From contig JABHBK010000021.1 in assembly GCA_018673915.1 (NCBI GenBank), forward strand, positions 1 through 36,182: a DNA stretch of 36,182 bases. The letters are read 5' to 3'. Made by a program: the position numbers and the translations under genes. Below are positions 3,533 through 21,883 of the stretch, one piece after another (within the stretch, counting starts at the first letter, position 1; each line of letters starts with the position of its first letter). The notes beneath the pieces are model-generated. The model was not told the DNA's origin. It searched no databases and saw nothing but the letters and a program-made list of their open reading frames with translations. Source of the DNA: Nitrospina sp. GTDB lineage: Bacteria > Nitrospinota > Nitrospinia > Nitrospinales > VA-1.

Positions 3533-3609
3533 TTAGTTCAGACCACCTTCATAAACGGCAAAAGGCTTATAACCCATTTCTTTAATTTTTTTTATCAGCG
3601 AGGAAGATT
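3533..3609 (-). pseudogene. Rhodanese-like C-terminal remnant
   Basis: In a frame different from the DUF1566 gene it touches, minus-strand bases 3600-3536 read LIKKIKEMGYKPFAVYEGGL followed by Asn and a TAA stop. This resembles the end of a rhodanese domain (..L...GY..vyvleGGl..W). A TAA lies a few codons upstream in the same frame, so no intact gene is present. It overlaps the last bases of the DUF1566 gene ending at 3595. It could be a decayed rhodanese gene, or chance coding-like sequence in a short gap; the peptide is too short to be sure. Confidence 0.4.
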
Positions 3610-4086
3610 AGAGGGTGAAAAGCCCGGATATTTATTGATTACACCTTTTTCTTTGTCCTGTTTTTCTATATCCCGGACCGCACGGACCGAATCTTTAGTA
3701 ATATCTTCCTTGTGATTTGAGTTCGCGTGTCCATAACGGTAATAAAAGATGGCGGCTGTGGCATGCGGCAACTCATTTGAAGTCCATGAGGTGAAACCAC
3801 CACCCGGCGAGAAAGTTGAGCTTATGAAAATATCCATGCGATCCATATCGCGAATGACATGATCTTCATCATAAAGGCTTTCTGCCTCTTCTAAAGTAGG
3901 CATTCTCCAGTCATCATAACCGGCAAACTTTTCAATTACCAAACTCAATAAATATTCCTTCGCCCTATACCAATTGAGCCACTTACTGGTATCCTGATAA
4001 GAGTCCGACTGTTTCCACATCAGTTTAGTCTCAAGGTCGGAAATAGTTCCATCCCCGTTATCTTTAAATCGGTTTTGCAATTCCAA
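3595..4086 (-). CDS. DUF1566 / Lcl_C domain protein (array member 7)
   Basis: A single DUF1566 domain (about residues 5-140 of 163) with the family hallmarks: DNGDGTISD, LMWKQSDSY, FAGYDDWRMPT, EEAESLYD, GGGFTSWTS and SVRAVRDIE. This family has a C-type-lectin-like fold, known from Legionella collagen-like protein and from many multi-copy bacterial proteins of unclear role. No signal peptide, so probably cytoplasmic. The start appears to be TTG (MELQNRF) with GGGAG eight bases upstream. It is the last DUF1566 gene of the array. Its C-terminal tail after VRD (KQDKEKG..) is longer than in its relatives and overlaps the rhodanese-like remnant. Confidence 0.8.
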   Translation of the reverse strand: MELQNRFKDNGDGTISDLETKLMWKQSDSYQDTSKWLNWYRAKEYLLSLVIEKFAGYDDWRMPTLEEAESLYDEDHVIRDMDRMDIFISSTFSPGGGFTSWTSNELPHATAAIFYYRYGHANSNHKEDITKDSVRAVRDIEKQDKEKGVINKYPGFSPSNLPR

Positions 4087-4121
4087 GTCTTTTTCTCCCG
4101 CTTAAGCGCTGATGTTAACCT

Positions 4122-4574
4122 TTAGTCATCCTTTTCAATATCACGAACCAATCTTGATGATCCTCTCGATACGCGAAAAATATCATCGTACATGGTGACT
4201 CCTTTTCGAAAGCTCAGGCGCACACCTTGTATATTATGCCGCACATCGCTGGTCCAGCAAAGGAACCCGCAACCCGGCTCAAATAAATTAGACAAGTAAA
4301 TCTCTTTGCCCATATTATCCGAGTTTTTTAGTTTTTTATCGAAGAGACTCTTCGCTTCCTCAGTGGTAGGAAGTCTCCAGTTGGAAAAACCAGCAAACTG
4401 CTTACGGTTCAGGCCTTCAGCAAAATCTTTAACCTGACGCTGGGCCATCCATTTTCCTGATAACTGCCAAGTATCTTTCTTAAGCCAAACCAAGCGTTTA
4501 GCGCCGTCAATAATTGTATCGCTGTCCGCTTCCATAAATCGCTCCGCGGCCTGATCCGAGCCTTGCTCACTCAT
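4122..4574 (-). CDS. DUF1566 / Lcl_C domain protein (array member 6)
   Basis: A 150-residue single-domain protein. The N-terminal signature is divergent (DSDTIIDGAKRLVWLKKD instead of DGTISD..LMW) but the rest is typical: FAGFSNWRLPTTEEAKSLFD, FEPGCGFLCWTS and SRLVRDIEKDD. It begins MSEQ, as do other members of the locus. The ATG lies five bases after the TAG stop of the two-domain gene upstream and has no clear Shine-Dalgarno sequence, which suggests translational coupling. No signal peptide. Function unknown; a binding or scaffold role is possible from the lectin-like fold but is not shown. Confidence 0.8.
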   Translation of the reverse strand: MSEQGSDQAAERFMEADSDTIIDGAKRLVWLKKDTWQLSGKWMAQRQVKDFAEGLNRKQFAGFSNWRLPTTEEAKSLFDKKLKNSDNMGKEIYLSNLFEPGCGFLCWTSDVRHNIQGVRLSFRKGVTMYDDIFRVSRGSSRLVRDIEKDD

Positions 4575-4579
4575 GATAG

Positions 4580-5467
4580 CTATTCATCATCTTTGGAGTC
4601 TCGGACTGCGCGAACACCATGACTGCGTAAACCTAATTGATGCCATTTATAGTCGCCATTATAAAAATGGAATCGAATGGCCAATCCTTTATCAGACTTA
4701 TTTAACGTTTTTGTCCAACATGTCAGACCCGCTCCGGCAGGAAAACCTTTCGCTAAAAATATTGTATCCCCATAGTTATCTGTAACAGGATTCGAAACGT
4801 CATAAATTCCCTGCGCTTCCTTCCGGGTGGGCATGCGCCAATCCTGATATCCGGCGAACCGCAACCTATTTAAACCCTGCACATAGGTTTTAGCCTCATC
4901 CCAACTGATCCATTTGTCCAAATCCAAATAGGAGTCGTCCGATTTCCACATCAGGCTGGTCTTGTTATCGCTAATCGTTCCGTCCTTATGGAGAACTATG
5001 CGGACAAAGTCCGGATCCTCCTCTTCTTCCTGAACATTGTCCCGAATCAGGCGCACAGCACTGGGGAAACCATCATTTTCTTTAGCAAGCCAGAATTCAA
5101 AATCGGATCGCAAGTCATACGCCATAGCCGCCTTAGCACCGCGGGTTTGGCTTGTCCAGGTGGTAAACCCACAGCCAGAAGTAAAAACGGGATCGACATG
5201 AATTTCACACCCCTCCACATCCGTATTGCTGGCAGACAAATGGAAAAGGAACTTAACTTCAGAGGAGGAAGGAATACGCCAATTACTATACCCGGCGAAT
5301 TTTTCCTCATTCATTTTACGCGCCAACTCCTGACTTTCGTGCCAAGTGATCAAACGCCCCAGGGTGACCCATGTGTCATTTTTCATCCACATAAGGTTAT
5401 GTTTCAAGTCAGTAACGGTATCGTCTCCGTTATCTACATATTGCGCTTCTAATTTGGTTTCTGTCAT
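4580..5467 (-). CDS. Two-domain DUF1566 / Lcl_C protein (array member 5)
   Basis: This 295-residue protein carries two DUF1566 domains in tandem. The first (about 8-145) has DNGDDTVTD, LMWMKNDTW, FAGYSNWRIPS, SGCGFTTWTS and AVRLIRD. The second (about 155-290) has HKDGTISD, LMWKSDDSY, FAGYQDWRMPT, AGAGLTCWTK and GVRAVRD. The linker is acidic (EEEEDPD). It looks like an internal duplication or a fusion of two neighbouring array genes. It starts MTETK with AAGGT six bases upstream and lies four bases after the previous stop codon, so it is clearly in an operon. No signal peptide. The duplication is certain from the repeats; the function is unknown. Confidence 0.82.
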   Translation of the reverse strand: MTETKLEAQYVDNGDDTVTDLKHNLMWMKNDTWVTLGRLITWHESQELARKMNEEKFAGYSNWRIPSSSEVKFLFHLSASNTDVEGCEIHVDPVFTSGCGFTTWTSQTRGAKAAMAYDLRSDFEFWLAKENDGFPSAVRLIRDNVQEEEEDPDFVRIVLHKDGTISDNKTSLMWKSDDSYLDLDKWISWDEAKTYVQGLNRLRFAGYQDWRMPTRKEAQGIYDVSNPVTDNYGDTIFLAKGFPAGAGLTCWTKTLNKSDKGLAIRFHFYNGDYKWHQLGLRSHGVRAVRDSKDDE

Positions 5468-5471
5468 TACT

Positions 5472-5993
5472 TTACCTTCTTCGTGGGCGGGACTGGTCTT
5501 TTATTACCTTGTCTTTTCGACAGATACGAACGGATCCAAAGCTATACTCTTCAACATATACAATCTTACCCTGGCTATAATCAAACCTTGGCCTGCGAGT
5601 GGAAGTATCTCCGGCAATCCATTCGGCCTTAAAGGCACCCTCAGGGAATACTGGATCAAGGTTCAAGATCACACCTCCCTTGCCCGGGTTTTCACATGAT
5701 TCATCATAAAGTGACGTGACTTCATCTTCATTGGGTAACCGCCAATCATCATAGCCGCCAATTTTTCTCATGTTCTTTTTATCAGAATAGTCAACAGCTT
5801 CATGCCAGTTAAAGAACTTGCCCTTATCCTGCCAGGAATCTTTCTTCAGCCAATAAACCCGTGTTTTACTATCAAAAACAACGTCACGGCCTTTTTCCAC
5901 AAACCTTTTCGGCTTATCATCCTTCTTGGCCAGAGACTGTTCTTTATGTTTGACTGGAGATTTTTCTGTTTCCTGGGGAAGTTCTTCTGTCAT
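5472..5993 (-). CDS. Divergent DUF1566-like protein (array member 4)
   Basis: A 173-residue protein with a Lys/Glu-rich N-terminal tail (MTEELPQETEKS.., about 1-35) before a DUF1566 domain. The early part is recognisable (VVFDSKTRVYWLKKDSW, IGGYDDWRLPNEDEVTSLYD, VILNLDPVFPEG). The later GCGF..WTS segment is degenerate (AFKAEWIAGDTS), and the closing motif is SVRICRKD. It is therefore the most diverged member of the array. ATG is preceded by AGGA four bases away. It lies 51 bases after the UXX-star-like gene and four bases before the two-domain gene. The altered core could mean changed ligand or structure, or early decay. Confidence 0.72.
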   Translation of the reverse strand: MTEELPQETEKSPVKHKEQSLAKKDDKPKRFVEKGRDVVFDSKTRVYWLKKDSWQDKGKFFNWHEAVDYSDKKNMRKIGGYDDWRLPNEDEVTSLYDESCENPGKGGVILNLDPVFPEGAFKAEWIAGDTSTRRPRFDYSQGKIVYVEEYSFGSVRICRKDKVIKDQSRPRRR

Positions 5994-6044
5994 ATTTTCC
6001 TATTTCTCACAATGGCCGACAGAGTCGGCAGGTTGAATACTTTG

Positions 6045-6272
6045 TTATATACTTATCTCGCCAGTATAGCCTATTTGCACACTGTCCTCATCGGCATTGA
6101 CAATGACCGGAACCACATACTTGTCGTCGGTATATTCCAGCAACTTCTTCAGCCCCTGTGGATCTTTATCCACATTTACAAACGCAAAAGACCGGTGCTG
6201 CTTTTTAAAGTCGGCCACGACCTTCTGGGTGTGAGGGCAGTCTTCCTTGCCAAATATCATATAGTTCGCCAT
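6045..6272 (-). CDS. Small thioredoxin-fold protein, UXX-star / glutaredoxin-like (Cys form)
   Basis: A ~75-residue protein matching the pattern of the UXX-star glutaredoxin-like family: KEDCPHT at the N-terminus (Cys12 when started at MANYM), a beta strand FAFVNVDKDP, then VVPVIV with the cis-proline and a final GYTGE. In many family members the first residue of the CPHT motif is selenocysteine; here it is TGC cysteine. It has a single active-site Cys and no partner Cys. The start at 6272 has GGAG four bases upstream; an alternative ATG at 6296 would add MGHSDWSV. It is embedded between DUF1566 genes, so a thiol-redox role in that operon is plausible but unproven. Confidence 0.6.
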   Translation of the reverse strand: MANYMIFGKEDCPHTQKVVADFKKQHRSFAFVNVDKDPQGLKKLLEYTDDKYVVPVIVNADEDSVQIGYTGEISI

Positions 6273-6310: not shown

Positions 6311-6922
6311 TTAACGTTCGAATGTTTTAGTATCCTTGCGCCATTCTGGTTCCCATTCGTCTTGAACCACATCACGAGTCACTCGACAATGGGAATATTC
6401 GTTGTCCTTATGCTCCCACACATCATTACCTGTCACATAACTGAATTTTTGCGCATATTGCTGATAGTCCGGTTTTTCTTCATAGGTCCAGGTATTGTGA
6501 CCGCCTCCCGTTTCAAACAAGTCTGAAATATGGATCTCCGCCCCATCCTTGTCGCTATTGGCCTGGGTAAACGAAAAAAGGCTTTTGGACTCTTCAATGC
6601 CAGCCAGCCTCCAGTCATCATAACCGGCGAATTTTTTATCGTTCAGCATTTCACAATAATCGTGGGCCTCAAACCAGGTAATTCCGTATTTGAACTCTTC
6701 GTAGGAATCATCCTTTTTCCACATCAGGTTGGACCGGGTATCACTGATGGTGCCATCGCCATTATCAACGAAATTTGGGAGCTCTTCCTCAACTACAGCA
6801 ACATCTTCCTCTTCTTCGTCGCCCCACTCCTCTTCACCAATCCACTCAGTCTCCGGCTCATCATCAACCAGTTCCGGGTCTACACCTTCATCAAATGTGC
6901 TTGGGTTGTCGTCTTCAGACAT
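6311..6922 (-). CDS. DUF1566 / Lcl_C protein with acidic N-terminal tail (array member 3)
   Basis: The first ~55 residues are strongly acidic (MSEDDNPSTFDEG, then EEEWGDEEEEDV). A complete DUF1566 domain follows: DNGDGTISD, LMWKKDDSY, FAGYDDWRLAGIEESKSLF, FETGGGHNTWTY and CRVTRDV. I chose ATG 6922 because TGAGGAT lies just upstream; the longer reading would start at a TTG inside that ribosome-binding site. No signal peptide. Spacing to the gene before it is about 30 bases, so it is part of the array operon. The acidic tail resembles those on the TPR and NHL proteins further along the locus, a shared feature across unrelated folds. Confidence 0.82.
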   Translation of the reverse strand: MSEDDNPSTFDEGVDPELVDDEPETEWIGEEEWGDEEEEDVAVVEEELPNFVDNGDGTISDTRSNLMWKKDDSYEEFKYGITWFEAHDYCEMLNDKKFAGYDDWRLAGIEESKSLFSFTQANSDKDGAEIHISDLFETGGGHNTWTYEEKPDYQQYAQKFSYVTGNDVWEHKDNEYSHCRVTRDVVQDEWEPEWRKDTKTFER

Positions 6923-6952
6923 TTTTATCCTCAACTTTACAGACCATAATTA

Positions 6953-7393
6953 TCAATCCATGTCCCTTACCATGCGTACCGAAGTACCAGTGGTCGATAC
7001 CGACTGATCCACACAAACTTCTTTCTTAATAGGGAAATAACTTTTCCACGCAAAAGAATCGTAGCGCGTTTCAGAAGTCCACACACAGGTTTCTCCTCCC
7101 GCCTGATAATTGGAAACTCTGCGCGCCGGTTTTTTGGGCAAGTTCAAAAACACTTCCCGATATTCATTTTCATTGCGAAATAAAGAACGCACTTCACTTT
7201 TAGTGGGGAGCCGCCAGTCACCATAACCTAAATATTTTTGTTCATTGCAGGCCTTTACGTAAGCATTGCTTTCGTCCCAGTTGAGCCACTTACCCAATTC
7301 CTGGCGGGAATCTCTCAACACCCACATCACATCATTATCCGGGTCTTCCACTGTGCCATCATCTTTTTTGACCCACTTGGTTTTAGATTCCAC
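6953..7393 (-). CDS. DUF1566 / Lcl_C domain protein (array member 2)
   Basis: A single DUF1566 domain of about 146 residues: KKDDGTVEDPDNDVMWVLRDS, YLGYGDWRLPTKSEVRSLF, ETCVWTS and SVRMVRDMD. The start is a GTG at 7393, or less likely the GTG directly before it at 7396; GAGG lies five bases upstream of 7393. No signal peptide. It is the first gene after a 350-base gap that contains an 18-base operator-like palindrome 57 bases upstream of the start. It may therefore open its own transcription unit running to the SEC-C or prolyl isomerase genes. Function unknown. Confidence 0.78.
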   Translation of the reverse strand: MESKTKWVKKDDGTVEDPDNDVMWVLRDSRQELGKWLNWDESNAYVKACNEQKYLGYGDWRLPTKSEVRSLFRNENEYREVFLNLPKKPARRVSNYQAGGETCVWTSETRYDSFAWKSYFPIKKEVCVDQSVSTTGTSVRMVRDMD

Positions 7394-7396
7394 CAC

Positions 7397-7748: not shown

Positions 7749-8243
7749 CTATCGCCAGCCGCCACCTTGAGTAATCATATCCTTGATTTCAGGGACATGA
7801 CCCACCTTGGTTTTTGAGTTATCAAATTCTCCACGCACCAGGCGAGCACTGGAGTTAAGAATATCATCCACTTCTTTATGCCCACCCGTACCGCTGTTAA
7901 ATGAATAACAATAAGCGGTGATTTTACCTCGTGTATTACTGGTCCAAGTGTCGTACCCACAACCCTCGGCAAATACCGGATCAATATGTATGACCATGTC
8001 GTATTTGTCATTTAAGGATTTATCCACATCAAATAGAGAGTGCGCCTCTCTTTTATTGGGAAGCCGCCAATCAGCATGGCCCGCAAAAGACTCTTCATTC
8101 TTTTTGGTCAAGTATTTTACAGCCGCCCTGTAACTGAGGAATTTCAGCAGGTCCAAATAGGAATCATTTCTCATCCACATCAATTGAGTCAGGTTGTCGG
8201 TGATTGTACCGTCTTCATTGTCTACAAATCTGTTTTCGCTCAT
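7749..8243 (-). CDS. DUF1566 / Lcl_C domain protein (array member 1)
   Basis: A 164-residue single-domain protein: MSENRFVDNEDGTITD, LMWMRNDSY, FAGHADWRLPNKREAHSLFD, FAEGCGYDTWTS and SARLVRGEF, then a short Gly-rich tail (MITQGGGWR). It starts directly at the domain without an acidic tail or signal peptide. No clear ribosome-binding site precedes the ATG. It is the most upstream gene of the array on the minus strand. It is separated from the next member by 350 bases, so it may be a single-gene unit. Domain assignment is firm; function unknown. Confidence 0.8.
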   Translation of the reverse strand: MSENRFVDNEDGTITDNLTQLMWMRNDSYLDLLKFLSYRAAVKYLTKKNEESFAGHADWRLPNKREAHSLFDVDKSLNDKYDMVIHIDPVFAEGCGYDTWTSNTRGKITAYCYSFNSGTGGHKEVDDILNSSARLVRGEFDNSKTKVGHVPEIKDMITQGGGWR

Positions 8244-8358: not shown

Positions 8359-8868
8359 TTAACGATTAGCTTCACTGGTTCCGCCACCATCAGCGTTACC
8401 ATTCTGGCTGAAGAGACCGCGCTCGGTACCTTCCGGTTGGCCCATACCTGGCTCAACATACGTTCCAGGTCGAACATGGTCCATGTGGTAATCGGTCTGG
8501 TAAGTTTTCTGAGAACCAGGATCCTTTTTCCACTCAACGCGATTAGCATTTTCTACACGATGCGCCTGACAATTAACTGTGATGTCACCAGGGCCTTTAT
8601 TCGTGAAACTCGTTTTCGGCTCCAAAGAATTTGCCAAGAATCCACCAGGCTCAAGAGTTCTGTCGAAATTCTTGTTGTAGGAATATCCCAATTTACCAAT
8701 GTGGATATGTACTGTGGTTCCAGCAGTTTCGCTCAGGTTCTCAAGAACCCAACTGGCATTAACACAAGCCGCTTTGCTACCAGATTTAAGAGTTGAAACG
8801 TTAGCACTAGCAATGGAAACAGTGAATACAAAAAATACCGCCAATAAAGCTACTACAGTCTTTCTCAT
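8359..8868 (-). CDS. Secreted protein of unknown function
   Basis: I do not recognise this gene. The start at 8868 (MRKTVVALLAVFFVF) is supported by GGGGGA five bases upstream; the longer reading begins at a less likely start. Residues 1-23 are a typical Sec signal peptide ending near ASA-N, so the mature ~146-residue protein should be periplasmic. It has two cysteines (AACVNASW and VNCQAH), a HIHIGKLGYS segment and beta-type hydrophobic alternation. The C-terminus is Gly/Asn-rich (QNGNADGGG) and looks unstructured. It is a single-gene unit with a candidate promoter, a ~170-base leader and a strong terminator, so it may be highly expressed. It sits between the DUF1566 array and the LRR/TPR/radical SAM operon. 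Confidence 0.75.
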   Translation of the reverse strand: MRKTVVALLAVFFVFTVSIASANVSTLKSGSKAACVNASWVLENLSETAGTTVHIHIGKLGYSYNKNFDRTLEPGGFLANSLEPKTSFTNKGPGDITVNCQAHRVENANRVEWKKDPGSQKTYQTDYHMDHVRPGTYVEPGMGQPEGTERGLFSQNGNADGGGTSEANR

Positions 8869-9044
8869 GTGCTCCCCCTTTCGAAGCTTAATTAAAGGTA
8901 AAACCTGAACAATGTAAAACTTTATCAATTCATCAACCTCTTCGGTGATTTGTACTAATAGCCTTAAGTTTCTATTCTTTTATCCTGCTACAAAACAATA
9001 GATTTCCCCTAAAAAAACCTTCAAAGTCTGGCTAGGGTGGCCTG

Positions 9045-9203: not shown

Positions 9204-9599
9204 TTATACTCTGAACTTCAAAGAGGTCAGGTTTAACAAGTCTGTAGAATTTCGCAGACTTTTTTCACCCTGCTCAGAAATATCATTGACCATCAATTGC
9301 AAAACTCGAATATTTGTTAATTGTTTCGAGGAAGCAAGGTAATTGGCCCCTACGTCAGTAATACTGTTTGAAGCTAAATTGAGATTTCTTAAATTGGATA
9401 ACACAGTGGACTCAGCAAGGGCCTTGACTCCCTCATCGCCAATACCGTTCTGCGAAAGATCCATAGATCGAACGTTTTTTAAACTTTCCTGCTTGGCCAA
9501 TTCTTTCGCGCCCACCTCTCTCAAAAACTGGGCCTTCAAGTTCAAAACTTGTCCGTCTTTGCTTAAACGGTCCCTAATCAATTCATCTACATTTGGCAT
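9204..9599 (-). CDS. Leucine-rich-repeat protein, ribonuclease-inhibitor type
   Basis: A 131-residue protein with about four repeats of the RI type, each ~26-28 residues: VRSMDLSQNGIGDEGVKAL, LRNLNLASNSITDVGANYL, IRVLQLMVNDISEQGEKSL and the partial LTSLKFRV. The N-terminal ~35 residues (MPNVDELIRDRLSKDG..) are charged and helical. No signal peptide or membrane segment. LRR arcs normally bind proteins. It is the last gene of a minus-strand run with the acidic TPR protein (22-base gap) and the radical SAM enzyme before it. A protein-binding role in that operon is likely; the partner is unknown. Confidence 0.8.
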   Translation of the reverse strand: MPNVDELIRDRLSKDGQVLNLKAQFLREVGAKELAKQESLKNVRSMDLSQNGIGDEGVKALAESTVLSNLRNLNLASNSITDVGANYLASSKQLTNIRVLQLMVNDISEQGEKSLRNSTDLLNLTSLKFRV

Positions 9600-10456: not shown

Positions 10457-11476
10457 TTAAACACAGTAAGGGGGAATCCCTTCTTCCACCCATTCTCCTG
10501 CTTTACCATTATTTATATTTTGGTGATTTTTTTGAATGCCCGAAACCATCTTTTTTCGGGACACATCTACCTTTTGCATAATTTCTATTGGCGAATCCAT
10601 CAAGAGATTGCCAAACTTAGGCTGACACTTCAGGTTGCCTACATCACAGCAGGGAGTTATTTCCCCGGTCTGCTGAACGGTAACAATTTCTATCGTGCCA
10701 CGGGGAATGGTGCATTCCAGCAAGTTAAAATCCTTGGGAAAAGGCTGGGCATTCATAGCCCGGTCACCATTTTTGTTCACATAAAACCCCGGAATCATAT
10801 TCAACCCAAACGTGAAATTGTCTGTGCAGATATAATTTTCCGTACCCTCCATATGCTTTAAAAACTCTCCCTCATTACATTCGGGATTTTCAGCTAACAA
10901 GTTTTCAAGCTTTGCGCGATAAGTCTCAAGCAGGGGCATGACGGATTGATATTTCTTTTCCTGCTCGCCAAAAAATGCCATCAAAAGCTCAATCTGGCTC
11001 AATAAATCCGGCACTTTTTCAAAGATCATGTTGACGATCAACTCGTCTTGTAGCCCAAGAATCTCAATCAGCAGAGGCTTTTGTCGTGACTCCCAAACCG
11101 TTGGATACAAAGTGAAGTCCACACGACCAGACAACTTCATAATCTCAACCAACCTAAGCCAACGCTGAGACTTTGCTGAATTAATGTCCAGGTTGGTATG
11201 AATCCGTACGTTGGGTGTTAGTTTTCTGAATATTTTAAATATTTCAACAATATGAGGGTTTTGAGATGGCTCCCCTCCTGTCAGATTAATCTCCCTCTTG
11301 GCCAACTCATGGAATACCTCCATCTGGAGAATTTTATCCACCATGGTTTGAGCCTGCTCCGGCATCAAATGCCAGTCATCTTTGGATATCTGACTTAGCG
11401 GTTCATAGACATGACAGTATTGACATTCATCACGTACATAGCGATTGCAATTGGCTTCGGCAAAAATATTTATCAT
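10457..11476 (-). CDS. Radical SAM enzyme with CX7CX2C motif and C-terminal Cys cluster (paralogue 1)
   Basis: A 339-residue protein whose N-terminus has CNRYVRDECQYC: Cys10, Cys18 and Cys21, spaced CX7CX2C instead of the canonical CX3CX2C. It also has the radical SAM GGE motif (NLTGGEPSQNP) and a TIM-barrel-like middle. The C-terminal part keeps cysteines LLEC, TPCCDVGNLKC and the final PPYC. These are spaced like an auxiliary-cluster (SPASM or twitch type) domain but not a standard one. A paralogue with every one of these cysteines lies at 19143-20162. The gene is coupled to an acidic TPR protein and followed by an LRR protein. A TTGACA box lies upstream at 11514-11509, but its -10 is weak. 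SPASM-type enzymes often modify peptides or proteins; the substrate here is unknown. Confidence 0.82.
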   Translation of the reverse strand: MINIFAEANCNRYVRDECQYCHVYEPLSQISKDDWHLMPEQAQTMVDKILQMEVFHELAKREINLTGGEPSQNPHIVEIFKIFRKLTPNVRIHTNLDINSAKSQRWLRLVEIMKLSGRVDFTLYPTVWESRQKPLLIEILGLQDELIVNMIFEKVPDLLSQIELLMAFFGEQEKKYQSVMPLLETYRAKLENLLAENPECNEGEFLKHMEGTENYICTDNFTFGLNMIPGFYVNKNGDRAMNAQPFPKDFNLLECTIPRGTIEIVTVQQTGEITPCCDVGNLKCQPKFGNLLMDSPIEIMQKVDVSRKKMVSGIQKNHQNINNGKAGEWVEEGIPPYCV

Positions 11477-11556: not shown

Positions 11557-12207
11557 TTATTTAGAAAGAGCACCCGTCTCTAAACCCGCATTCAAAATAG
11601 ATCGAACCGGCCTGATGGTAGATAAAGAAAGGCCCGGGCCGCCTTTCATGCTGGGGTAGCTTTTGCCCCGGATATAATTAAATCCCCAAGCATACTTTTT
11701 CTTATAACCCTCGCTTGACCAGAAACAACAACTGGAATAACCGAAGATAGGGTCGATATGAATAACATTTTCAGTCCAGTAATATTTCCAGGGAATATCC
11801 TTATCTTCCTCGTAAAGAGACTCTAGTTCTTTGCGGGTCGGCAGACGCCAGTCAGAATGATTGGCATAAGCCTCATTATTAAATTTTTCAATGAAGATTT
11901 GCGCTTCTTCCCAATTTATCCAAACCTTTTTTTCCTGATAAATATCAATTTTCTTCCACATTAACGCTTCCTTCAAGTCTGTAATGGTCCCATCCTTATT
12001 ATCCTGAAATCTGGGATCATTAGAAGGCTCCAACTCCGGTTTTTCCTCAGTCAGCGAAAGAATCTGACCGCCAAAAATTTCATCGGAACTGCTGTTATTA
12101 GAGTTTGCCAGTGCAAAATCTGCTCCACACACTGCCAACACAAAAAAAGCAACCTGAAGGGATTGGATAAACGGGGGGAATAGTCGAATCGTTTTTTCTC
12201 GGATCAT
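11557..12207 (-). CDS. Exported DUF1566 / Lcl_C protein
   Basis: Unlike the array members it has a hydrophobic N-terminal segment (FIQSLQVAFFVLAVCGADFALA, about residues 10-32) consistent with a signal peptide or anchor. I started it at ATG 12207 (MIREKTIRLF). After a Ser/Asn-rich linker and an acidic stretch comes a full DUF1566 domain: DNKDGTITD, LMWKKIDIY, NHSDWRLPTRKELESLY, IDPIFGYSSCCFWSSEG and TIRPVRSI. The SSCC pair is unusual for the set. A small GCGGAG/CTCCGC hairpin lies at 12237-12251, just before the start. It sits between the NHL propeller and the radical SAM gene. It may be the periplasmic counterpart of the cytoplasmic DUF1566 proteins. Confidence 0.8.
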   Translation of the reverse strand: MIREKTIRLFPPFIQSLQVAFFVLAVCGADFALANSNNSSSDEIFGGQILSLTEEKPELEPSNDPRFQDNKDGTITDLKEALMWKKIDIYQEKKVWINWEEAQIFIEKFNNEAYANHSDWRLPTRKELESLYEEDKDIPWKYYWTENVIHIDPIFGYSSCCFWSSEGYKKKYAWGFNYIRGKSYPSMKGGPGLSLSTIRPVRSILNAGLETGALSK

Positions 12208-12336
12208 CAAGAGTTTCCTAAAAGTCTGGTTTTCTAGCGGAGAACCTCCGCGGGTAAATTGCAATAACCTTACCCTGCGGGCAAAGATTCTATCGGCTCA
12301 ACGAGTTCTTACTCTCTGCCCTCGGCAGCTCGCCGA

Positions 12337-13341: not shown

Positions 13342-13506
13342 GACAAACCTCACTCCCCGAATCAGGGCAAAATTAAGCTCCAAAAAGGAAAGAGCCCTGA
13401 AAGGGGCTCTTCCGCACCACAACTGAATATTGTTCCCGACAACCCTTCAAGGTTGCCTAAAAAACCTGAGTAACGTTTTCTATCTGCATCAATTCATCCA
13501 GAGGAC

Positions 13507-14445: not shown

Positions 14446-16254
14446 ATGAAAATCGCACTTCTATTTCCGCCACAGTGGTATCCCAGCCAGCCCTATCTGG
14501 CCCTGCCTACTTTAAAAGCCCATCTCGAATCCAAGGGTCATGAAGTAGACCAATTTGATTTTAATATAGAAAGTTATGAGATTTTCCTGTCCCAGGAATA
14601 TTTGAGCCATTGTGTGGAAATCATCCGGGAGCGGCTGTCCCGTCCTGCCTATACGAATGAAGAGCAGGAAGTCAAAGCCGTGTATCGGGATATTTTGTCG
14701 GATAACGCTTTTCTAGACTCCATCTTGAACGAAGTCGAAGATGCTAAAAACGTTCTGCGTGATGAAGAACGATTTTTCCAGTTTGAAACTTATAAAAAAG
14801 CCTACACCACGCTAAAAGTGGCTATGAAGCTCATTTCTTATGCCCATCACCCCAGCCGGTTGGATCTGGACTCCTTTTTCATGATGGGCAACCCGGAAGA
14901 AAACCTTGCCGGAATTCTCTCAGCAACGGCTGACTCGGTCAGGAATCCGTTCATAAAGATGTATGAAGACTACCTGCTTGAAAAAGTAGCCTGGAATGAT
15001 TACGGAGTGGTAGGCATATCCATTATCCATATTGGGCAAGTCATTCCCGGCCTGACTCTCGCACGCCTGTTGCGTAAGCGGTTTGAACATCTGCATATCG
15101 TGATTGGAGGAAGTGTGTTCAATCGCCACGCCGATCTGCTCGATAATAAGCAGGCCTTATTTGAGGAATTTTTTCACAGTGTCATCGTCTCGGAAGGGGA
15201 AAAACCCTTGGAAGAGTTGGTCAGCCATCTCAAGACCGAAAAACCCCTGGCGACTGTTCCCAACCTCATTTATATGGAGGGCGATAAGGTTATTCATAAC
15301 CCCAAAGCAGAGGCTCTTCCTTACGATCAGTTGGTCTGCCCTACGTTTGACCAATTGCCGCTGAATAAATATTTAATGCCTTATCCCGTTTTGCCATACA
15401 TGTCCAGCCGGGGTTGTTATTGGGGGAAATGTACGTTCTGCACCCATAGCTTTATTTATGATTCCTATTACCGCAAAGAAAATGAAACAAGGGTGGCCGA
15501 AGATTTGGATCACCTCTCGCAAAAATATAAAACCAAATACTTCACATTTTCTGATGAAGCCATCTCCCCCAATGCTTTCAATCGCATGTCCAAGGCAATT
15601 TTGAAAAGAGGCGTCGAAATGCGTTCATTGGGAATGCTCAAGTTTGAATCAGGAGATAAAGAGTCCCCGGAACTGTTTGAAGATGTGTACCGCGCGGGAT
15701 TTCTCATGCTATTTTTCGGATTGGAAAGTGCCAACGACCGCATCCTCTCCATCATCGACAAAGGTTGTGATCAAGAAACCGAAAGGAGCGTGCTGAAAAA
15801 CAGTTCCGATGCCGGGATATGGAACCATCTCTACCTGTTTTTCGGATTTCCCACAGAAGAACGCGAGGAAGCGGAAGACACCATCCAATTCACCATAGAA
15901 AACTCGGAAACCGGAACCGGGCATATCCATTCAGTCGGCCAGTCCATCTTCGCTCTGGAAAAAGATTCCGCTATCTACCACAACCCAGCCAAATTCAAAA
16001 TTGACCGGATCATTCATGACCCCGATCGGGATATGGCAATCGTGTTCGATTTTGATATTAAAGCCGGAATGCCTCGGGAAGAAGTAATGGATGTCTACGA
16101 GCACTTCAACACCGTAATCGGAGAAACCTTTCCCTCCCGCAATATCTGGAACTATCTCTCACGTGAACACTTCCTGCTCTACCTCGACCGATTCGGCAAA
16201 GAAGAAATCCTCAATATGTCTCGCCAGCATGATGCTGGACTCAGCAGACAATGA
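14446..16254 (+). CDS. Radical SAM protein with B12-binding-type N-terminus
   Basis: A 602-residue protein. The N-terminus (MKIALLFPPQWYPSQPYLALPTL) and GISIIHIGQ..GLTLARLL..VIGGS follow the layout of cobalamin-binding (B12) domains of class B radical SAM enzymes, though the DxHxxG motif is not evident. The radical SAM domain begins at RGCYWGKCTFC (Cys324, Cys329, Cys332; CX4CX2C). This spacing is familiar from RGCYWGKC-type B12 radical SAM proteins. FSDEAISP and LMLFFGLESANDRILSIIDKG are typical barrel motifs. ATG has AGGGA six bases upstream. It begins a plus-strand group with a TPR protein, a MidA-like methyltransferase and a CX7CX2C radical SAM enzyme. The B12 domain is inferred from position and pattern; the substrate is unknown. 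Confidence 0.82.
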   Translation: MKIALLFPPQWYPSQPYLALPTLKAHLESKGHEVDQFDFNIESYEIFLSQEYLSHCVEIIRERLSRPAYTNEEQEVKAVYRDILSDNAFLDSILNEVEDAKNVLRDEERFFQFETYKKAYTTLKVAMKLISYAHHPSRLDLDSFFMMGNPEENLAGILSATADSVRNPFIKMYEDYLLEKVAWNDYGVVGISIIHIGQVIPGLTLARLLRKRFEHLHIVIGGSVFNRHADLLDNKQALFEEFFHSVIVSEGEKPLEELVSHLKTEKPLATVPNLIYMEGDKVIHNPKAEALPYDQLVCPTFDQLPLNKYLMPYPVLPYMSSRGCYWGKCTFCTHSFIYDSYYRKENETRVAEDLDHLSQKYKTKYFTFSDEAISPNAFNRMSKAILKRGVEMRSLGMLKFESGDKESPELFEDVYRAGFLMLFFGLESANDRILSIIDKGCDQETERSVLKNSSDAGIWNHLYLFFGFPTEEREEAEDTIQFTIENSETGTGHIHSVGQSIFALEKDSAIYHNPAKFKIDRIIHDPDRDMAIVFDFDIKAGMPREEVMDVYEHFNTVIGETFPSRNIWNYLSREHFLLYLDRFGKEEILNMSRQHDAGLSRQ

Positions 16255-16409: not shown

Positions 16410-17519
16410 ATGGGCGAGGCAGGCAAACCAACAGACTGGATCACGATGAAAATCGATCCGGAGATTTTTGAAGAACTGGGAGTCCGCGATCCTGAAGAAA
16501 CCAAGCGGGAGATGGCAATTACCAAGAAGACCCGCCAGGTAAACAAGGAGTTGAAAACCGACCCGGACAACCTGGATCTTAAAATAGAGCTGGCCACCTT
16601 AATGATTGATGGCGCGAATTATGAAGAAGCCGTTAATCAACTCAAGGCCATTCGCAATAAAGCCCCAAAAAATGCCCGCGTACACAAACTGCTGGGCACA
16701 GCATATGTTTTATTCAATCATGAAGAAGAAGGTATGCTCGAATTAAACCGGGCTTGCGAATTGGACCCCACTGATGCGGAAAACTACTTCAACCTGGGTG
16801 GCCTTTATTTGCTCCGTGACATGTACCAAAATGCCATGGAAGCCTTTGAAAAAGTTATTGAGCTGGACCCTTCAGACACAACAGCCTATGCCAACCTGGC
16901 CGCGGCATATGACATGCTCAAACTTTATGACAAGACCATCATCGCACTGAGAAAAGTGTTGATGTTCAACCCGGAAGACAAGGAACTGCGTGCGGCACTT
17001 TCCAACGCGTATTTTAACGCCGAGCGTTATGAAGAAGCCATTGATGCCGCCCAGGTAGTCGTGGAAATTGATGATAAAGACCCGCAAGCCTATTGCAACC
17101 TGGGCAGTTGCTACTCCGTTTGCAATATGATTGACGATGCTATCAGTGCATTCAAAAAAGCCACTGAGCTTGCGCCCGACTATTCGTTGCCTCATACCAA
17201 CCTCGGAACCCTTTATGCCAATATGGGACGGCCAGAAACCGCACTTAAGGAATTCAAGATAGCGGTAGATCTCAATGCTCAAGACGCGGCCGCTTGGATG
17301 AATCTATACAATTGTTATAAAGAAGTCGGGTTGATGGAAGAATCGCAGAACGCTTACAAAAAGTACGAAGCTTTAATCAATGCCCCTGCTCCTGCAGCAA
17401 CGGGGGGAGAAAACCCGGCAAATATCCCAGGTGGGGTTTCCCAAACTGGTGGATATGCTGGAGGGGGAGACATGGAAGGAAACGCACCCGGCATGGAAAC
17501 TCTGACGGATAGCGATTAA
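16410..17519 (+). CDS. TPR-repeat protein
   Basis: A 369-residue protein built from about eight tetratricopeptide repeats between residues ~45 and 330, for example ARVHKLLGTAYVLFNHEEEG, AENYFNLGGLYLLRDMYQNA, TAYANLAAAYDMLKLYDKT, PQAYCNLGSCYSVCNMIDDA and SLPHTNLGTLYANMGRPETA. The N-terminal ~40 residues are charged (KIDPEIFEELGVRDPEE). The C-terminal ~45 are Gly/Pro-rich and look disordered. No signal peptide, so a cytoplasmic scaffold is likely. It has its own strong promoter and is followed by an intrinsic terminator, so it can be expressed as a single gene even though it lies between radical SAM and methyltransferase genes. Confidence 0.88.
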   Translation: MGEAGKPTDWITMKIDPEIFEELGVRDPEETKREMAITKKTRQVNKELKTDPDNLDLKIELATLMIDGANYEEAVNQLKAIRNKAPKNARVHKLLGTAYVLFNHEEEGMLELNRACELDPTDAENYFNLGGLYLLRDMYQNAMEAFEKVIELDPSDTTAYANLAAAYDMLKLYDKTIIALRKVLMFNPEDKELRAALSNAYFNAERYEEAIDAAQVVVEIDDKDPQAYCNLGSCYSVCNMIDDAISAFKKATELAPDYSLPHTNLGTLYANMGRPETALKEFKIAVDLNAQDAAAWMNLYNCYKEVGLMEESQNAYKKYEALINAPAPAATGGENPANIPGGVSQTGGYAGGGDMEGNAPGMETLTDSD

Positions 17520-17605: not shown

Positions 17606-17610
17606 CCATC

Positions 17611-18999
17611 ATGACTCAACCTCCCCACAATTTAACTGCGCTTGGGGATTTCAAACCATCTAATATCTGGCAGACCCATATCAATTCCATTTTTTACGGA
17701 ATCAAGGGGCCGCTCATCCACAACCATTTTCAAACCTATGTGAGTCTGGACTACCGTCTGGCCCATGCACTCGCGAATGATTTTTATACCCACGCTAAAA
17801 ACCAACAACCAAAAAATGAGACTTGGTATGTGCAGGAATGGGGGGTGGGCAATGGCAATCTGGCCGCCTGTTTTCTCAGCCACCTGCGCGAAATAGATAG
17901 CGAGAATGAGGTTTATCCGTCTGTCCATTACATCCTCTGCGATGAATCCGAAGAAATTCTGAAAGGCGTGCGGGCCAATCCCCGTCTGCAGGAACATGCA
18001 AGCAAATTTTCCACAGTTCGAATTGACGCTGAACATCTAAATTGCTTTCGGCCCAGCTCGGTAGCAAAAATCATCTCCAATGAAATCTGGGACGACCTGG
18101 CGACTAAAGTCCTGCTGAAGCATCAAGGACTTTTTTACGAAGAGTATCTGTGCCCGTTCCTGGATATGGAAGCAATACCTGCCGAAAAAAATATCTTTCT
18201 GGAACAGTTTAATAACAAAGACCTGACCAACCTGGCCCAGCTTCCGCCTTTTCTCGATGCCATTCATTGGGAACGGGATTTCCAAAGAATAAATCTGGAT
18301 GATTGGCCGTTTGCAGAAATTTTGAAAGCCCACGCCGAAGAATTTAAAGATGAAATTCCCATGCCCATCAATGTCGGTGCTTTTAGTACCATCACCAAAG
18401 CAAAAGAACTGCTCGGGCCGGAAAATTTTGGCTACACCAGTTTTGACTACGGCATGAAAACCATGCAGGACCTCAATCAGGAAGGCCGACCCTATTTCAA
18501 TTTGTACGGAGGACAATACACCTTCATGGTGAACTTTCCCTTGCTGGAAAATATGGGTCGCTCTATCGGATTCACAGATATCACTCGAGAATATCAAAAT
18601 CAGTTTGTGCAAAAAGATCTCGGATCCGAAGCTATCAGTTTGGTCGACCTGATGCAGCAACACCCGCGAGTTGCAGAAATGCCGCCCTGGGATAGAGACA
18701 TTCTGATGCTCAGCACGCTCCATGCTCTCAACACCGTTTATCGCAGTCCTTATTCAGGAAAACTGGATTACCCGGCGATGGAAGGAACCCCGAAAAAACA
18801 AAGAAAACAAATCGCGCAACTGTCTAAAAACCTTAGTAGCCGGGGTGTTCCCGATACTGTCGCCTATGTCACTCGCGAAGAAGTTTTAGCCTCCCTAAAA
18901 CCCCTGAGGAAACTGGGCTACCGGGAAAAAGATATCGAAGCCGCCTTTCAATCTCCTCCTCCACCTGTCTCATTCGTTCATATTCAATTCAGCACCTAG
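17611..18999 (+). CDS. MidA/NDUFAF7-like SAM-dependent methyltransferase
   Basis: A 462-residue protein resembling the MidA (DUF185) family. EWGVGNGNLAACFLSHL matches the glycine-rich SAM-binding motif (E.G.GnG.La). YILCDESEEILKGV and FYEEYLC resemble later family positions. Mitochondrial MidA/NDUFAF7 dimethylates an arginine of the complex I subunit NDUFS2. The bacterial members are mostly uncharacterised, so the substrate here is open. No signal peptide. The start ATG has no Shine-Dalgarno sequence and lies six bases after a terminator T tract, so expression probably depends on read-through. It is flanked by a TPR protein and a radical SAM enzyme. Confidence 0.65.
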   Translation: MTQPPHNLTALGDFKPSNIWQTHINSIFYGIKGPLIHNHFQTYVSLDYRLAHALANDFYTHAKNQQPKNETWYVQEWGVGNGNLAACFLSHLREIDSENEVYPSVHYILCDESEEILKGVRANPRLQEHASKFSTVRIDAEHLNCFRPSSVAKIISNEIWDDLATKVLLKHQGLFYEEYLCPFLDMEAIPAEKNIFLEQFNNKDLTNLAQLPPFLDAIHWERDFQRINLDDWPFAEILKAHAEEFKDEIPMPINVGAFSTITKAKELLGPENFGYTSFDYGMKTMQDLNQEGRPYFNLYGGQYTFMVNFPLLENMGRSIGFTDITREYQNQFVQKDLGSEAISLVDLMQQHPRVAEMPPWDRDILMLSTLHALNTVYRSPYSGKLDYPAMEGTPKKQRKQIAQLSKNLSSRGVPDTVAYVTREEVLASLKPLRKLGYREKDIEAAFQSPPPPVSFVHIQFST

Positions 19000-19142: not shown

Positions 19143-20162
19143 ATGCTCAGTATTTTTGTTGAAACCAGTTGCAACCGCTATAACCGGGACGAGTGCGAAT
19201 TCTGCCATGTGTATGAACCGCTGATGGAGCATCCCGTCTCCGAATGGCATTTGACGGTGCAACAGGCCCAGATGATGGCGGATAAAATCCGCAATGTAGA
19301 CGTACTCAATACTCTGGCTCAACAAGAGATCAACCTGACCGGCGGCGAAGCGTCGCAGAATCCGGATATTGTCGAAATCTGCAAAGTGTTCCAATCCGTT
19401 ACGCCCTATGTTTGTCTGCACACCAACCTCGACATGCTTTCAGAAAAATCCAAACGTTGGCAAAGACTGGTCGAAATCATGCAACGGGGTGGCCGGGTAG
19501 ACATCACGCTATACCCAACCGCATGGGAGAAGTCGCAAAAACTATTCCTCGAAGAAATGTTAAAACTGCAGAACAAACTGATCGTGAATGTGGTGTATGA
19601 AACCCTGCCCGATTTACAAAACCAGATTGACCTGTTGTTAAATTTTTTCAAAGACCGGGGTTCACTCTATGCACATGTGACAAAACTCTTGCAATCCTAT
19701 GCAGAAAAAGTCACGACCCTGATTGCAACCCACCCCCACTGCGATGAAAAAATTTTCACAATGGGTATGGGGGACACCGAGGCCTTCGCCAGCAAACCGG
19801 AATTTATTTTTGGCATCAGCCTGTTGCCCGCTTTCAACATCGATAAAAACGGATTCCGGGCGATGACGTCCCTGCCCTTTCCGCGCGACAAATATTTAAT
19901 TGGTTGTCCAGCTGCAAGGGGTTCGATTGACATCATGACGATTCAGCAAAACGGAGAGATGACACCTTGTTGTGATGTCGGGAACTTGAAATGCCAACCC
20001 AAATTCGGCAATGTTCTTAACGATAGTCCCGAAGAAATTATGGGGAAGATGGAAAGCTCAATGAAAGTACTGGCGTCAGGAGTCCGCAAAAACCATGAAA
20101 ACATCAAGTCCGGAAAAGCGGGTGAACAGGTCGAAGAAGGCATCCCTCCTTATTGTAACTAG
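19143..20162 (+). CDS. Radical SAM enzyme with CX7CX2C motif and C-terminal Cys cluster (paralogue 2)
   Basis: A 339-residue paralogue, of identical length, of the gene at 10457-11476. It conserves CNRYNRDECEFC (Cys10, Cys18, Cys21), NLTGGEASQNP, HTNLDM, LIGC, TPCCDVGNLKCQPKFGN and the C-terminal GIPPYC. The middle (about 150-240) is more diverged than the two ends. The conservation of five C-terminal cysteines suggests a second iron-sulphur cluster or substrate-binding metal site. No signal peptide. GGAG lies 11 bases before the ATG. It follows the MidA-like gene by 143 bases and faces the acidic NHL gene, with a terminator between them. I infer protein or peptide modification; no precursor peptide was found. 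Confidence 0.82.
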   Translation: MLSIFVETSCNRYNRDECEFCHVYEPLMEHPVSEWHLTVQQAQMMADKIRNVDVLNTLAQQEINLTGGEASQNPDIVEICKVFQSVTPYVCLHTNLDMLSEKSKRWQRLVEIMQRGGRVDITLYPTAWEKSQKLFLEEMLKLQNKLIVNVVYETLPDLQNQIDLLLNFFKDRGSLYAHVTKLLQSYAEKVTTLIATHPHCDEKIFTMGMGDTEAFASKPEFIFGISLLPAFNIDKNGFRAMTSLPFPRDKYLIGCPAARGSIDIMTIQQNGEMTPCCDVGNLKCQPKFGNVLNDSPEEIMGKMESSMKVLASGVRKNHENIKSGKAGEQVEEGIPPYCN

Positions 20163-20202
20163 CCCACTCTCATAGAAGGATTAGACAACACCACTTAAAA
20201 AA

Positions 20203-20244
20203 AAATCCCCCCGGTGGCCTTCATAGAAGGGGCCGGGGGGATTT
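20203..20244 (-). terminator. Intrinsic terminator between converging radical SAM and NHL genes
   Basis: AAATCCCCCCGG (20203-20214) pairs with CCGGGGGGATTT (20233-20244). The A run on the left gives a T tract on the minus strand after the NHL gene, and the hairpin may also stop the plus-strand transcript. Confidence 0.85.
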
Positions 20245-20263
20245 GAATTTGCAAGATGATCGG

Positions 20264-21883
20264 TTAAGCCGAGGGCAGTTCTCCCGGGGGAACTTCTTCC
20301 TCTTCTTCTTCGAAGAAATCGTCTTCGTCCTCATCGTCACCGATCAACAGATTTTCGTCATCAACCACAAGCTCTTCGAACTCTTCTTCCTCATCTTCTT
20401 CTTCCTTCTGATAGGGAAGTTCGTCCCAGACCACTACGCGGGAGTTACCCCGGTCGCAGATGAAAAGTTTGAATTTGGGTTGCGGCTCTTCCGGCTCTTG
20501 TTCTTCCCCTTCTGAACCTTCGACCAAAGCCGTTTCATCATCATCGTCATCATCCGGCATCGGTATTCCGCGAAACTCTTCTTCCTCCTCTTCTTCGTCG
20601 ATCAACAACAACCCATAAGGATCGTTGAGTGTGCAATTGGAAGCATCGTCCAAATTCCGGTTGACTTTATTTTCTGTAAAAGTGGCCTGACCCAAAACCA
20701 GATCAGCGGGCTGTCCACTTTCGGTGGGTATTTCTTTCCAATACAAGACACGGTTATTACCGGTATCGGAGACAAACATTCCTGCTTCTCCGACCACTAC
20801 ATCTGTTGGAAAATATAACCCATCTGCGGAAGGCCGGTGGTGCCCATTGCCTCGGTTCGGCTCTCGGTTGAAAAAATCTTTTTGTCCAATCACCACATCA
20901 GCGGCGACCCCACCTGTATCCCGAGGAATTCGATTCCAGATCAATACACGGTTGTTGCCTTGATCTACTACGAAGATGCGTTCGCTCTCCGCATCGAAAT
21001 GCACGCCCGATGGAAAGCTGAGAGTATCCTGACCTACATTATCGAATTCGCCCTGATTAGGCCAGCGATCATCCATACCTTTTTGACCCAGCGAAATATC
21101 TGCATTCCACCCATCACTAAAAGGAATTTTATTCCAGACTAAAACACGGTGGTTGTCTTTATCGGCGACTAATACATGTTTGTCATCACCCGAGTGGATG
21201 CCCATGGGGAAAAATAATGAACCGGAACCGACAAACCCTCGGCGGTTGGCTTCGTTATCATCCAGGTTATCCTGTCCCAGCACCAGCCCAGGGGCTTCGC
21301 CATCTTCTGAGGGAATTCCACTCCATCGCAATACCCGATGGTTTCCACTGTCCACCACATAAAGTTTTCCATCAATAACACACATACCTGCCGGCTGGGA
21401 GAGGGTGTCCTCTTCCGCCTTACTGATGGTGAATCCATCCAGATCTTCGTCTCCCAATCCGGAAGTCATTTCATCCAGAGTGGTGGTAATACCTCTGTTT
21501 TCGAGACAGTCGGCAAAATCTTCCTGACCCAGTACCAGGGATGATGGCTCGCCATTTTCTTCGGGAAACTGCTCCCAAATCAAAACCCGGTGGTTACCTC
21601 TATCAGAAACAAACAGCATGTCCCCAAACTTATCGATAAATTGGGGTTCGCATAATGTGTTATCACCAGGATCATCCGCTCCCCGGTTGGATTGGGACAT
21701 AGAAAAATCCCCCTGACCAAGAACCAAAAAAGCACCGGTTTCGGGTATTACTTCTTCTACAACCTCTTCCACCTCATCCATTTCATCCGATTCATCGACT
21801 TCGTCAAGCAAGACATTCTCATCTTCAGTGACGCTCAACGAATCATCGGCTTCGGTATCTTCCATTTCGTTATCTTCTGACAT
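20264..21883 (-). CDS. Very acidic six-repeat NHL beta-propeller protein
   Basis: A 539-residue protein with six NHL-type repeats of ~60-70 residues. Each carries a (G/D)N(H/N/S)RV..W..(I/L)P core (GNHRVLIW, GNHRVLRW, DNHRVLVW, GNNRVLIW, GNNRVLYW, GNSRVVVW), and most are preceded by a (L/V)(V/I)(L/I)GQ strand. Three acidic zones stand out: the N-terminus (MSEDNEMEDTEADD..), an Asp/Glu insertion between repeats five and six (DEEEEEEEF, DDDDDDE) and the C-terminus. I chose ATG 21883, with GGAG nine bases upstream, over the TTG five codons earlier. No signal peptide. It converges on the radical SAM gene. The acidity suggests binding to basic partners or divalent metal, as inference. Confidence 0.83.
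   Translation of the reverse strand: MSEDNEMEDTEADDSLSVTEDENVLLDEVDESDEMDEVEEVVEEVIPETGAFLVLGQGDFSMSQSNRGADDPGDNTLCEPQFIDKFGDMLFVSDRGNHRVLIWEQFPEENGEPSSLVLGQEDFADCLENRGITTTLDEMTSGLGDEDLDGFTISKAEEDTLSQPAGMCVIDGKLYVVDSGNHRVLRWSGIPSEDGEAPGLVLGQDNLDDNEANRRGFVGSGSLFFPMGIHSGDDKHVLVADKDNHRVLVWNKIPFSDGWNADISLGQKGMDDRWPNQGEFDNVGQDTLSFPSGVHFDAESERIFVVDQGNNRVLIWNRIPRDTGGVAADVVIGQKDFFNREPNRGNGHHRPSADGLYFPTDVVVGEAGMFVSDTGNNRVLYWKEIPTESGQPADLVLGQATFTENKVNRNLDDASNCTLNDPYGLLLIDEEEEEEEFRGIPMPDDDDDDETALVEGSEGEEQEPEEPQPKFKLFICDRGNSRVVVWDELPYQKEEEDEEEEFEELVVDDENLLIGDDEDEDDFFEEEEEEVPPGELPSA

What the first reader, a model, noticed from the sequence alone, without database searches (positions are those of the whole stretch)
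3595..21883. Putative protein-modification or scaffold locus: three radical SAM enzymes, a MidA-like methyltransferase and a large set of binding domains
Seen: nine DUF1566 domains, two NHL propellers, two TPR proteins, an LRR protein, two CX7CX2C radical SAM paralogues, one B12-type radical SAM and a MidA-like methyltransferase lie within 18 kb. The flanks hold a parvulin and an NxrC-like cytochrome. Known: SPASM-type radical SAM enzymes often modify proteins or peptides, MidA/NDUFAF7 methylates a complex I arginine, and DUF1566 has a C-type-lectin-like fold. Inference: these genes form one system that matures or organises a respiratory complex, or modifies the acidic repeat proteins. I know of no described system with this composition.
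Basis: partly seen in the sequence, partly recalled or inferred. Interest (0 to 1): 0.75.

Follow-up and report, generated by a model that had tools for sequence, protein, structure and literature searches.

The report
Conserved three-part locus of marine nitrite-oxidisers
In one order of marine nitrite-oxidising bacteria, three neighbouring gene groups of unknown function (a large set of binding proteins, a small methylation set and an electron-carrier set) are kept in nearly fixed order, while the two radical enzymes that first drew attention are optional extras that many relatives lack.

Summary
In detail: nine DUF1566 domains in eight genes, two NHL propellers, two TPR proteins, an LRR protein, two CX7CX2C radical SAM paralogues, a B12-type radical SAM and a MidA-like methyltransferase lie where stated, and they recur in relatives. 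But they are not one indivisible system. Maps of 46 stretches from 36 genomes show three separable units: U1 (2009-14130, minus: acU, NHL, nine DUF1566 domains, TPR, LRR, exported protein, SEC-C, parvulin), U2 (14446-18999, plus: B12-rSAM, TPR, MidA) and U3 (20264-23983, minus: acidic NHL, diheme alt-NxrC, exported protein). Markers of U1 and U2 occur in 56 and 57 of 64 genomes of the order and in 0 of 13 others of the phylum. The CX7CX2C radical SAMs are accessory: 39 of 64 order genomes, from an old A/B duplication, probably lost several times. No residue change in the neighbouring proteins could be tied to their absence, and no precursor peptide was found, so modification of the acidic or DUF1566 proteins is unsupported. 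A role of the units in nitrite oxidation is possible, not shown. My literature searches found no description of this locus.

The parts
2009..2587 (-). U1: cytoplasmic parvulin-type prolyl isomerase
   Evidence: PF13616 86.2 bits; next to SEC-C in 5 of 5 mapped genomes where both are seen
2676..3464 (-). U1: SEC-C motif protein
   Evidence: PF02810 37.1 bits; next to D1 in 8 of 8
3595..4086 (-). U1: DUF1566 protein D1
   Evidence: PF07603 66.1 bits; own clade, five rows
4122..4574 (-). U1: DUF1566 protein D2
   Evidence: PF07603 53.1 bits; own clade
4580..5467 (-). U1: two-domain DUF1566 protein D3-D4
   Evidence: PF07603 139.9 bits, two stretches; each domain its own clade
5472..5993 (-). U1: DUF1566 protein D5
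   Evidence: PF07603 54.9 bits; own clade
6311..6934 (-). U1: DUF1566 protein D6 with acidic N-terminus
   Evidence: PF07603 63.3 bits; pI 4.1; own clade
6953..7396 (-). U1: DUF1566 protein D7
   Evidence: PF07603 60.3 bits; own clade
7749..8243 (-). U1: DUF1566 protein D8; C-terminal tail ends in GGGWR in family f1, otherwise in f2 and f4
   Evidence: PF07603 72.2 bits; 33 sequences compared
8359..8928 (-). U1: secU, probable exported protein of unknown family, conserved C-terminal tail
   Evidence: no Pfam hit; signal-like N-terminus read from the sequence; next to D8 in 26 of 26
9204..9599 (-). U1: LRR protein
   Evidence: PF13516 43 bits
9621..10493 (-). U1: TPR1, acidic N-terminus; ORF overlaps the end of rSAM_A
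   Evidence: PF00515 34.3 bits; pI 4.2
10457..11476 (-). accessory rSAM_A, CX7CX2C radical SAM with SPASM/twitch-like C-terminus
11557..12264 (-). U1: DUF1566 protein D9 with signal-like N-terminus
   Evidence: PF07603 71.2 bits; own clade
12337..13422 (-). U1: NHL1 propeller, no signal peptide seen
   Evidence: PF01436 134.1 bits
13507..14130 (-). U1: acU, first gene of the operon, helical protein of no known family
   Evidence: 56 of 64 order genomes, 0 of 13 others; helical model; no family above chance
14446..16254 (+). U2: B12-type radical SAM enzyme (CX4CX2C)
   Evidence: PF04055 44.4 bits, PF02310 26.9 bits; TIGR03975 128.9 bits; ortholog in at least 55 of 64 order genomes
16410..17519 (+). 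U2: TPR2
   Evidence: PF00515 97.8 bits; next to MidA in 30 of 30
17611..18999 (+). U2: MidA-like methyltransferase, the only PF02636 match in the genome held
19143..20162 (+). accessory rSAM_B, CX7CX2C radical SAM with SPASM/twitch-like C-terminus
20264..21898 (-). U3: NHL2 propeller with long acidic runs
   Evidence: PF01436 75.6 bits; pI 4.1; next to NxrC in 20 of 20
21964..23544 (-). U3: diheme c / heme b (EB_dh) cytochrome of the alt_NxrC type
   Evidence: PF09459 99 bits, two cytochrome c stretches; compare alt_NxrC in PMC3578206 (passages)
23498..23983 (-). U3: short protein with signal-like N-terminus, next to NxrC
   Evidence: next to NxrC in 20 of 20; no Pfam hit

Best explanation
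The region holds three neighbouring, separately conserved, order-specific gene units plus two accessory enzymes. Shown: unit membership, orthology, distribution, and absence of the rSAM genes from intact junctions in several lineages. Inferred: repeated loss, and every function. U1 most likely encodes the subunits of one mostly cytoplasmic protein assembly. Its helical acU, NHL propeller, TPR, LRR and nine DUF1566 domains are binding modules, each kept as its own ortholog and so with its own partner, with a prolyl isomerase and a SEC-C protein as folding helpers. U2 most likely is a protein-methylation module: TPR2 presents a protein, the B12 radical SAM methylates an unreactive carbon and the MidA-like enzyme an arginine or similar residue. 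U3 is an electron-transfer branch with an alternative NXR gamma subunit. rSAM_A and rSAM_B are old paralogous SPASM/twitch-like enzymes that add a dispensable modification, probably to a protein or peptide; each can be absent alone or together with the other.
Confidence: 0.45

Rival explanations
1. One system: radical SAM enzymes and MidA modify the acidic/DUF1566/NHL proteins or mature a respiratory complex, with all parts needed.
For: Co-location across genera; rSAM_B, where on a mapped stretch with U2, sits next to MidA; shared order-wide distribution of the core genes.
Against: 23 of 25 order genomes without rSAM keep acU. 12 of 20 testable neighbouring protein sets have no residue that separates rSAM-plus from rSAM-minus genomes. 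In the D8 set the rSAM-plus genomes G032, G036 and G031 share the tail type of their rSAM-less kin. rSAM_A lies on another contig near SelO in two f2 genomes.
Confidence: 0.15
2. Neighbours by slow rearrangement only: three unrelated operons that happen to lie side by side.
For: Flanks stay syntenic 11-16 kb beyond the small cytochrome c in G017, G025 and G046; inserts between U1 and U2 in 5 of 31 and between U2 and U3 in 6 of 24 genomes; far apart in 3 of 31 and 4 of 24.
Against: acU, MidA and the B12-rSAM ortholog share one distribution: most of the order, none outside. That is also what common descent alone would give.
Confidence: 0.33
3. A ribosomal-peptide (RiPP) cluster in which the radical SAM enzymes modify a small precursor.
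For: Several of the best fold matches, and the best family of the B12 enzyme, are RiPP maturases.
Against: Of 96 short intergenic frames none matched more than 6 of 23 relative stretches; matches beyond the genus were few and 12-29 residues long, often on both strands as intergenic DNA would be (top 25 frames shown).
Confidence: 0.04
4. U2 is a complex I assembly module: the MidA-like enzyme methylates the NuoD arginine as NDUFAF7 does.
For: PF02636 match over the cut-off, invariant EWGVGNG and NEIWDD motifs, only such match in the genome. NDUFAF7 role: start of the abstract of PMC3829151 in a search listing.
Against: Absent from 13 of 13 genomes of the phylum outside the order, although I did not check which of these have complex I. 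Nothing else in U2 points to complex I.
Confidence: 0.12

Closest known systems
SPASM/twitch radical SAM enzymes, many of them peptide maturases (PqqE, SkfB, SuiB, EpeE, ChlB)
   Different: No second SPASM cysteine cluster, invariant C-terminal PPYC, no precursor gene found, NCBIfam best hits 26 bits or less against cut-offs of 131 and more
TIGR03975 RiPP maturation B12 radical SAM C-methyltransferase
   Same: Best NCBIfam family of the U2 enzyme, 128.9 bits
   Different: Under the cut-off of 281.85; CX4CX2C motif (read from the sequence); beside TPR and MidA genes, no precursor found; one of five matches in its genome
MidA/NDUFAF7 (PF02636)
   Same: Motif I and the NE..D motif; 25.2 bits, cut-off 23.3
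   Different: Only the first half of the profile matches; sits with a B12 radical SAM; no sequence match in the PDB at E <= 0.1
alt_NxrC of Nitrospina gracilis (PMC3578206)
   Same: Heme b (EB_dh) domain plus two c-type heme stretches
   Different: I could not match the gene to one of the paper's alt_NxrC copies

Membership tests
SPASM/twitch radical SAM (rSAM_A, rSAM_B) | Radical SAM cysteine motif | tested here: met
   CX7CX2C invariant in 16 of 16 sequences
SPASM/twitch radical SAM (rSAM_A, rSAM_B) | Radical SAM barrel fold | tested here: inconclusive
SPASM/twitch radical SAM (rSAM_A, rSAM_B) | Full SPASM cysteine set (CX9-15GX4C then CX2CX5CX3C; pattern recalled) | tested here: not met
   First half present (C255, G271, C276), second half absent: only C277, C284 and C338 follow as invariant. 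Pfam SPASM at its cut-off for rSAM_B, not found for rSAM_A
RiPP system | Short precursor gene near the enzyme | tested here: not met
   None of 96 short intergenic frames of at least 18 codons conserved through the order
TIGR03975 RiPP C-methyltransferase | Curated score cut-off | tested here: not met
   128.9 bits against 281.85
B12-binding radical SAM superfamily | B12-binding plus radical SAM domains | tested here: inconclusive
   PF04055 44.4 bits over its cut-off; PF02310 26.9 bits, below its cut-off of 32.1; weak PDB match to OxsB, E 8.3e-5
MidA/NDUFAF7 | PF02636 above cut-off and SAM-binding motifs | tested here: met
   25.2 of 23.3 bits; EWGVGNG and NEIWDD invariant in 17 sequences
MidA/NDUFAF7 | Symmetric dimethylation of the NuoD/NDUFS2 arginine | not testable with these tools
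   needs mass spectrometry
alternative NXR gamma subunit (alt_NxrC) | EB_dh heme b domain plus c-type heme sites | tested here: met
   two CXXCH read from the sequence
NXR core gamma subunit (NxrC of nxrABC) | Encoded in the nxrABC operon | tested here: not met
   Window contig is C2; the NxrB piece found is on C34; the EB_dh gene after NxrB in G020 is a different, shorter one

The most novel reading that the evidence does not exclude
Probability: 0.1. Interest if true: 0.85.

Novelty: new variant of a known kind. Interest (0 to 1): 0.45.

Why it matters
Nitrospina relatives are the most frequently met marine nitrite oxidisers (PMC3578206, start of abstract). A set of about 18 genes of unknown function kept in nearly fixed order through most of one order, with its marker genes not found in the rest of the phylum, is a clear target for what sets these bacteria apart. 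The CX7CX2C radical SAM pair is a separate small case: a family found, in these searches, almost only in this order, whose natural presence and absence among close relatives offers ready-made controls for finding its substrate.

Tried and rejected
Co-regulation by a shared box: the motif upstream of several genes is part of a dispersed repeat, about 75 nt by eye, with 13 exact core copies in the genome, so I dropped it.

Riboswitch or other RNA: no Rfam hit at gathering threshold.

rSAM footprint in neighbours (a residue present in all rSAM-plus and at most 40% of rSAM-minus genomes): of 21 protein sets, parvulin was too small to test, 12 gave none and 8 gave some (D8, D7, D5, D3D4, D2, D1, SECC, NxrC). 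Only D8 was read in full. Its three positions looked linked at first (14 of 14 rSAM-plus). Within f1 the rSAM-less genomes are mixed: G022 keeps all three, G007 and G024 two, G017 one, G050 and G051 none. Adding genomes, the rSAM-plus G032 and G036 (f2) and G031 (f4) have none of the three, like their rSAM-less kin, and G018 (split rSAM) none (33 sequences). So the pattern follows kinship. The other seven sets, small or split by family, were not read residue by residue; a footprint there is not excluded.

NXR co-occurrence: NxrB found in 24 of 77 genomes, 21 in the order (20 at 95-100% identity, G021 at 65%) and 3 outside. The duplicated, nearly identical operons could not be assembled from reads in N. 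gracilis (PMC3578206, passages), so absence from a draft says little; I draw no conclusion.

acU: TorD-like chaperones do not appear among the listed fold matches, which shows nothing either way; designed bundles score as well as natural ones there. Only one of five acU models was confident. A Foldseek-only search of acU could not be run.

rSAM tree: 40 of the 50 loci plus the two window copies; left out were six partial ones (L149, L150, L155, L156, L159 and the weak L160/L161 pair counted with them as seven) and three full-length ones (L112, L130, L142) that I did not enter.

Full report
What is there. The window is the whole of contig C2 of a 3.15 Mb draft genome; the nearest named relatives of its rSAM proteins are Nitrospina, Nitrospinaceae and Nitrospinota records. 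The order's name, Nitrospinales, is my recall; the tools only say 'same order'. All components named in the finding are present. Nine of the genome's 23 DUF1566 domains lie in this stretch, far more than an even spread would give.

Comparison with relatives. I mapped 46 stretches from 36 of the 64 order genomes that are held (families f1-f4), besides the window; the stretches were chosen around rSAM, B12-rSAM, MidA-side or acU matches. One search counted each junction where both genes, or one gene with 5 kb on both sides, lie on a stretch; rSAM_A, rSAM_B, STAS, SxtJ, PMT1, KamA, PPI1 and PPI2 were not counted as inserts, nor were unlabelled frames under 450 nt. Inside U1 (acU-NHL1-D9-TPR1-LRR-secU-D8-D7-D6-D5-D3D4-D2-D1-SEC-C-parvulin) no pair was far apart; exceptions are G026, where D2 and D3D4 are swapped and no D8 is seen, and one insert in G021. 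Inside U2, TPR2-MidA held in 30 of 30 and B12rSAM-TPR2 in 26 of 30. Inside U3, NHL2-NxrC and NxrC-u23498 held in 20 of 20 each. Between U1 and U2, 23 of 31 were adjacent, 5 had inserts, 3 were far. Between U2 and U3, 14 of 24 were adjacent, 6 had inserts, 4 were far. These numbers favour three units. Cautions: gene order is kept 11-16 kb beyond the small cytochrome c in G017, G025 and G046, with some of the same genes in G010; SerA follows the parvulin in f1, f2 and f4, so the left edge of U1 rests on G050 alone, where NHL2 takes SerA's place. Twenty further stretches (12 more genomes) fit the same picture, with one more break between B12rSAM and TPR2 in G064; they are not in the counts.

Distribution. 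acU: 56 of 64 order genomes, 0 of 13 others, single copy (two matches in G011 and G013 are pieces). MidA: 57 of 64, one of them (G024) a 46-residue piece, and 0 of 13. B12-rSAM ortholog at 62% identity or more: at least 55 of 64, counted by hand from a list that was cut; weaker paralogues are common, including in G041 outside the order. rSAM_A/B: 39 of 64 and 0 of 13, one of the 39 (G030) being only a 43-residue remnant. Of these 39, 33 have acU; the six without are drafts of 61-84% completeness. Of the 25 order genomes without rSAM, 23 have acU.

Tests of the modification idea. If the radical SAMs modified the neighbours, their absence should relax some residue. Of 20 testable protein sets 12 showed none. 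In D8, three tail positions looked linked, but rSAM-carrying genomes of f2 and f4 share the tail of their rSAM-less kin. Seven other sets with some positions were not read further. This is weak evidence against. No conserved precursor frame was found in the gaps.

DUF1566. Each of the nine domains forms its own supported clade (bootstrap 95-100, SH-aLRT 91-100), eight reaching at least two other families and D1, from five rows, reaching f3, on a tree of few columns whose bootstrap had not settled. The 14 domains from elsewhere in the genome fall outside these clades on long branches. So nine distinct domains predate the families; they are not a recent tandem expansion. Papers that contain the term DUF1566 deal, by their titles, mostly with Legionella, Leptospira and diversity-generating retroelements (search listing). 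I did not search this genome for a retroelement.

Literature. Searches gave 2 papers for Nitrospina with 'radical SAM', 1 for Nitrospinota with 'radical SAM', and 0 for Nitrospina with DUF1566, Nitrospina with 'NHL repeat', and DUF1566 with 'radical SAM'; the three listed papers have unrelated titles and were not opened, and the library is partial. PMC3578206 (passages) describes alt_NxrC proteins with c-type hemes, which fits the U3 cytochrome.

Judgement.

Noticed in passing
288-304, 14212-14228, 16306-16322, 19079-19095: Dispersed repeat of about 75 nt ending in CCCCACGCCTAGTGG; 13 exact copies of its 13-nt core in the genome against 0 for the reversed control.
   Followed up: partly
G000:C63:167398-171133 (L108): Tandem pair of B12-rSAM paralogues (48% and 34% identical to the U2 enzyme) near another NHL protein; most order genomes hold three to six matches.
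   Followed up: partly
L051:5393-7037: Phosphonate-type ABC binding protein and ATPase between the small cytochrome c and SxtJ in G020; no such genes among the window's ORFs between 24917 and 25098.
   Followed up: no
L055:9753-13293, L057:8800-11333, L177:301-2447: rSAM_A or its remnant lies near SelO in three f2 genomes.
   Followed up: partly
26302-27465: A fourth radical SAM gene, lysine-2,3-aminomutase-like (name from recall), in the flank.
   Followed up: no
30525-31758: Two neighbouring cyclophilin-like genes that share a 300-nt direct repeat at 77%; only the second was scanned against Pfam.
   Followed up: no
L045:7403-13561: Five-gene insert between acU and B12-rSAM in G005.
   Followed up: no
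L184, L185, L186, L187: In four g7 genomes a gene of 583-593 residues lies between LRR and rSAM_A; the similar-sized gene in L053 (G021) is methyltransferase-like (PF02390).
   Followed up: no
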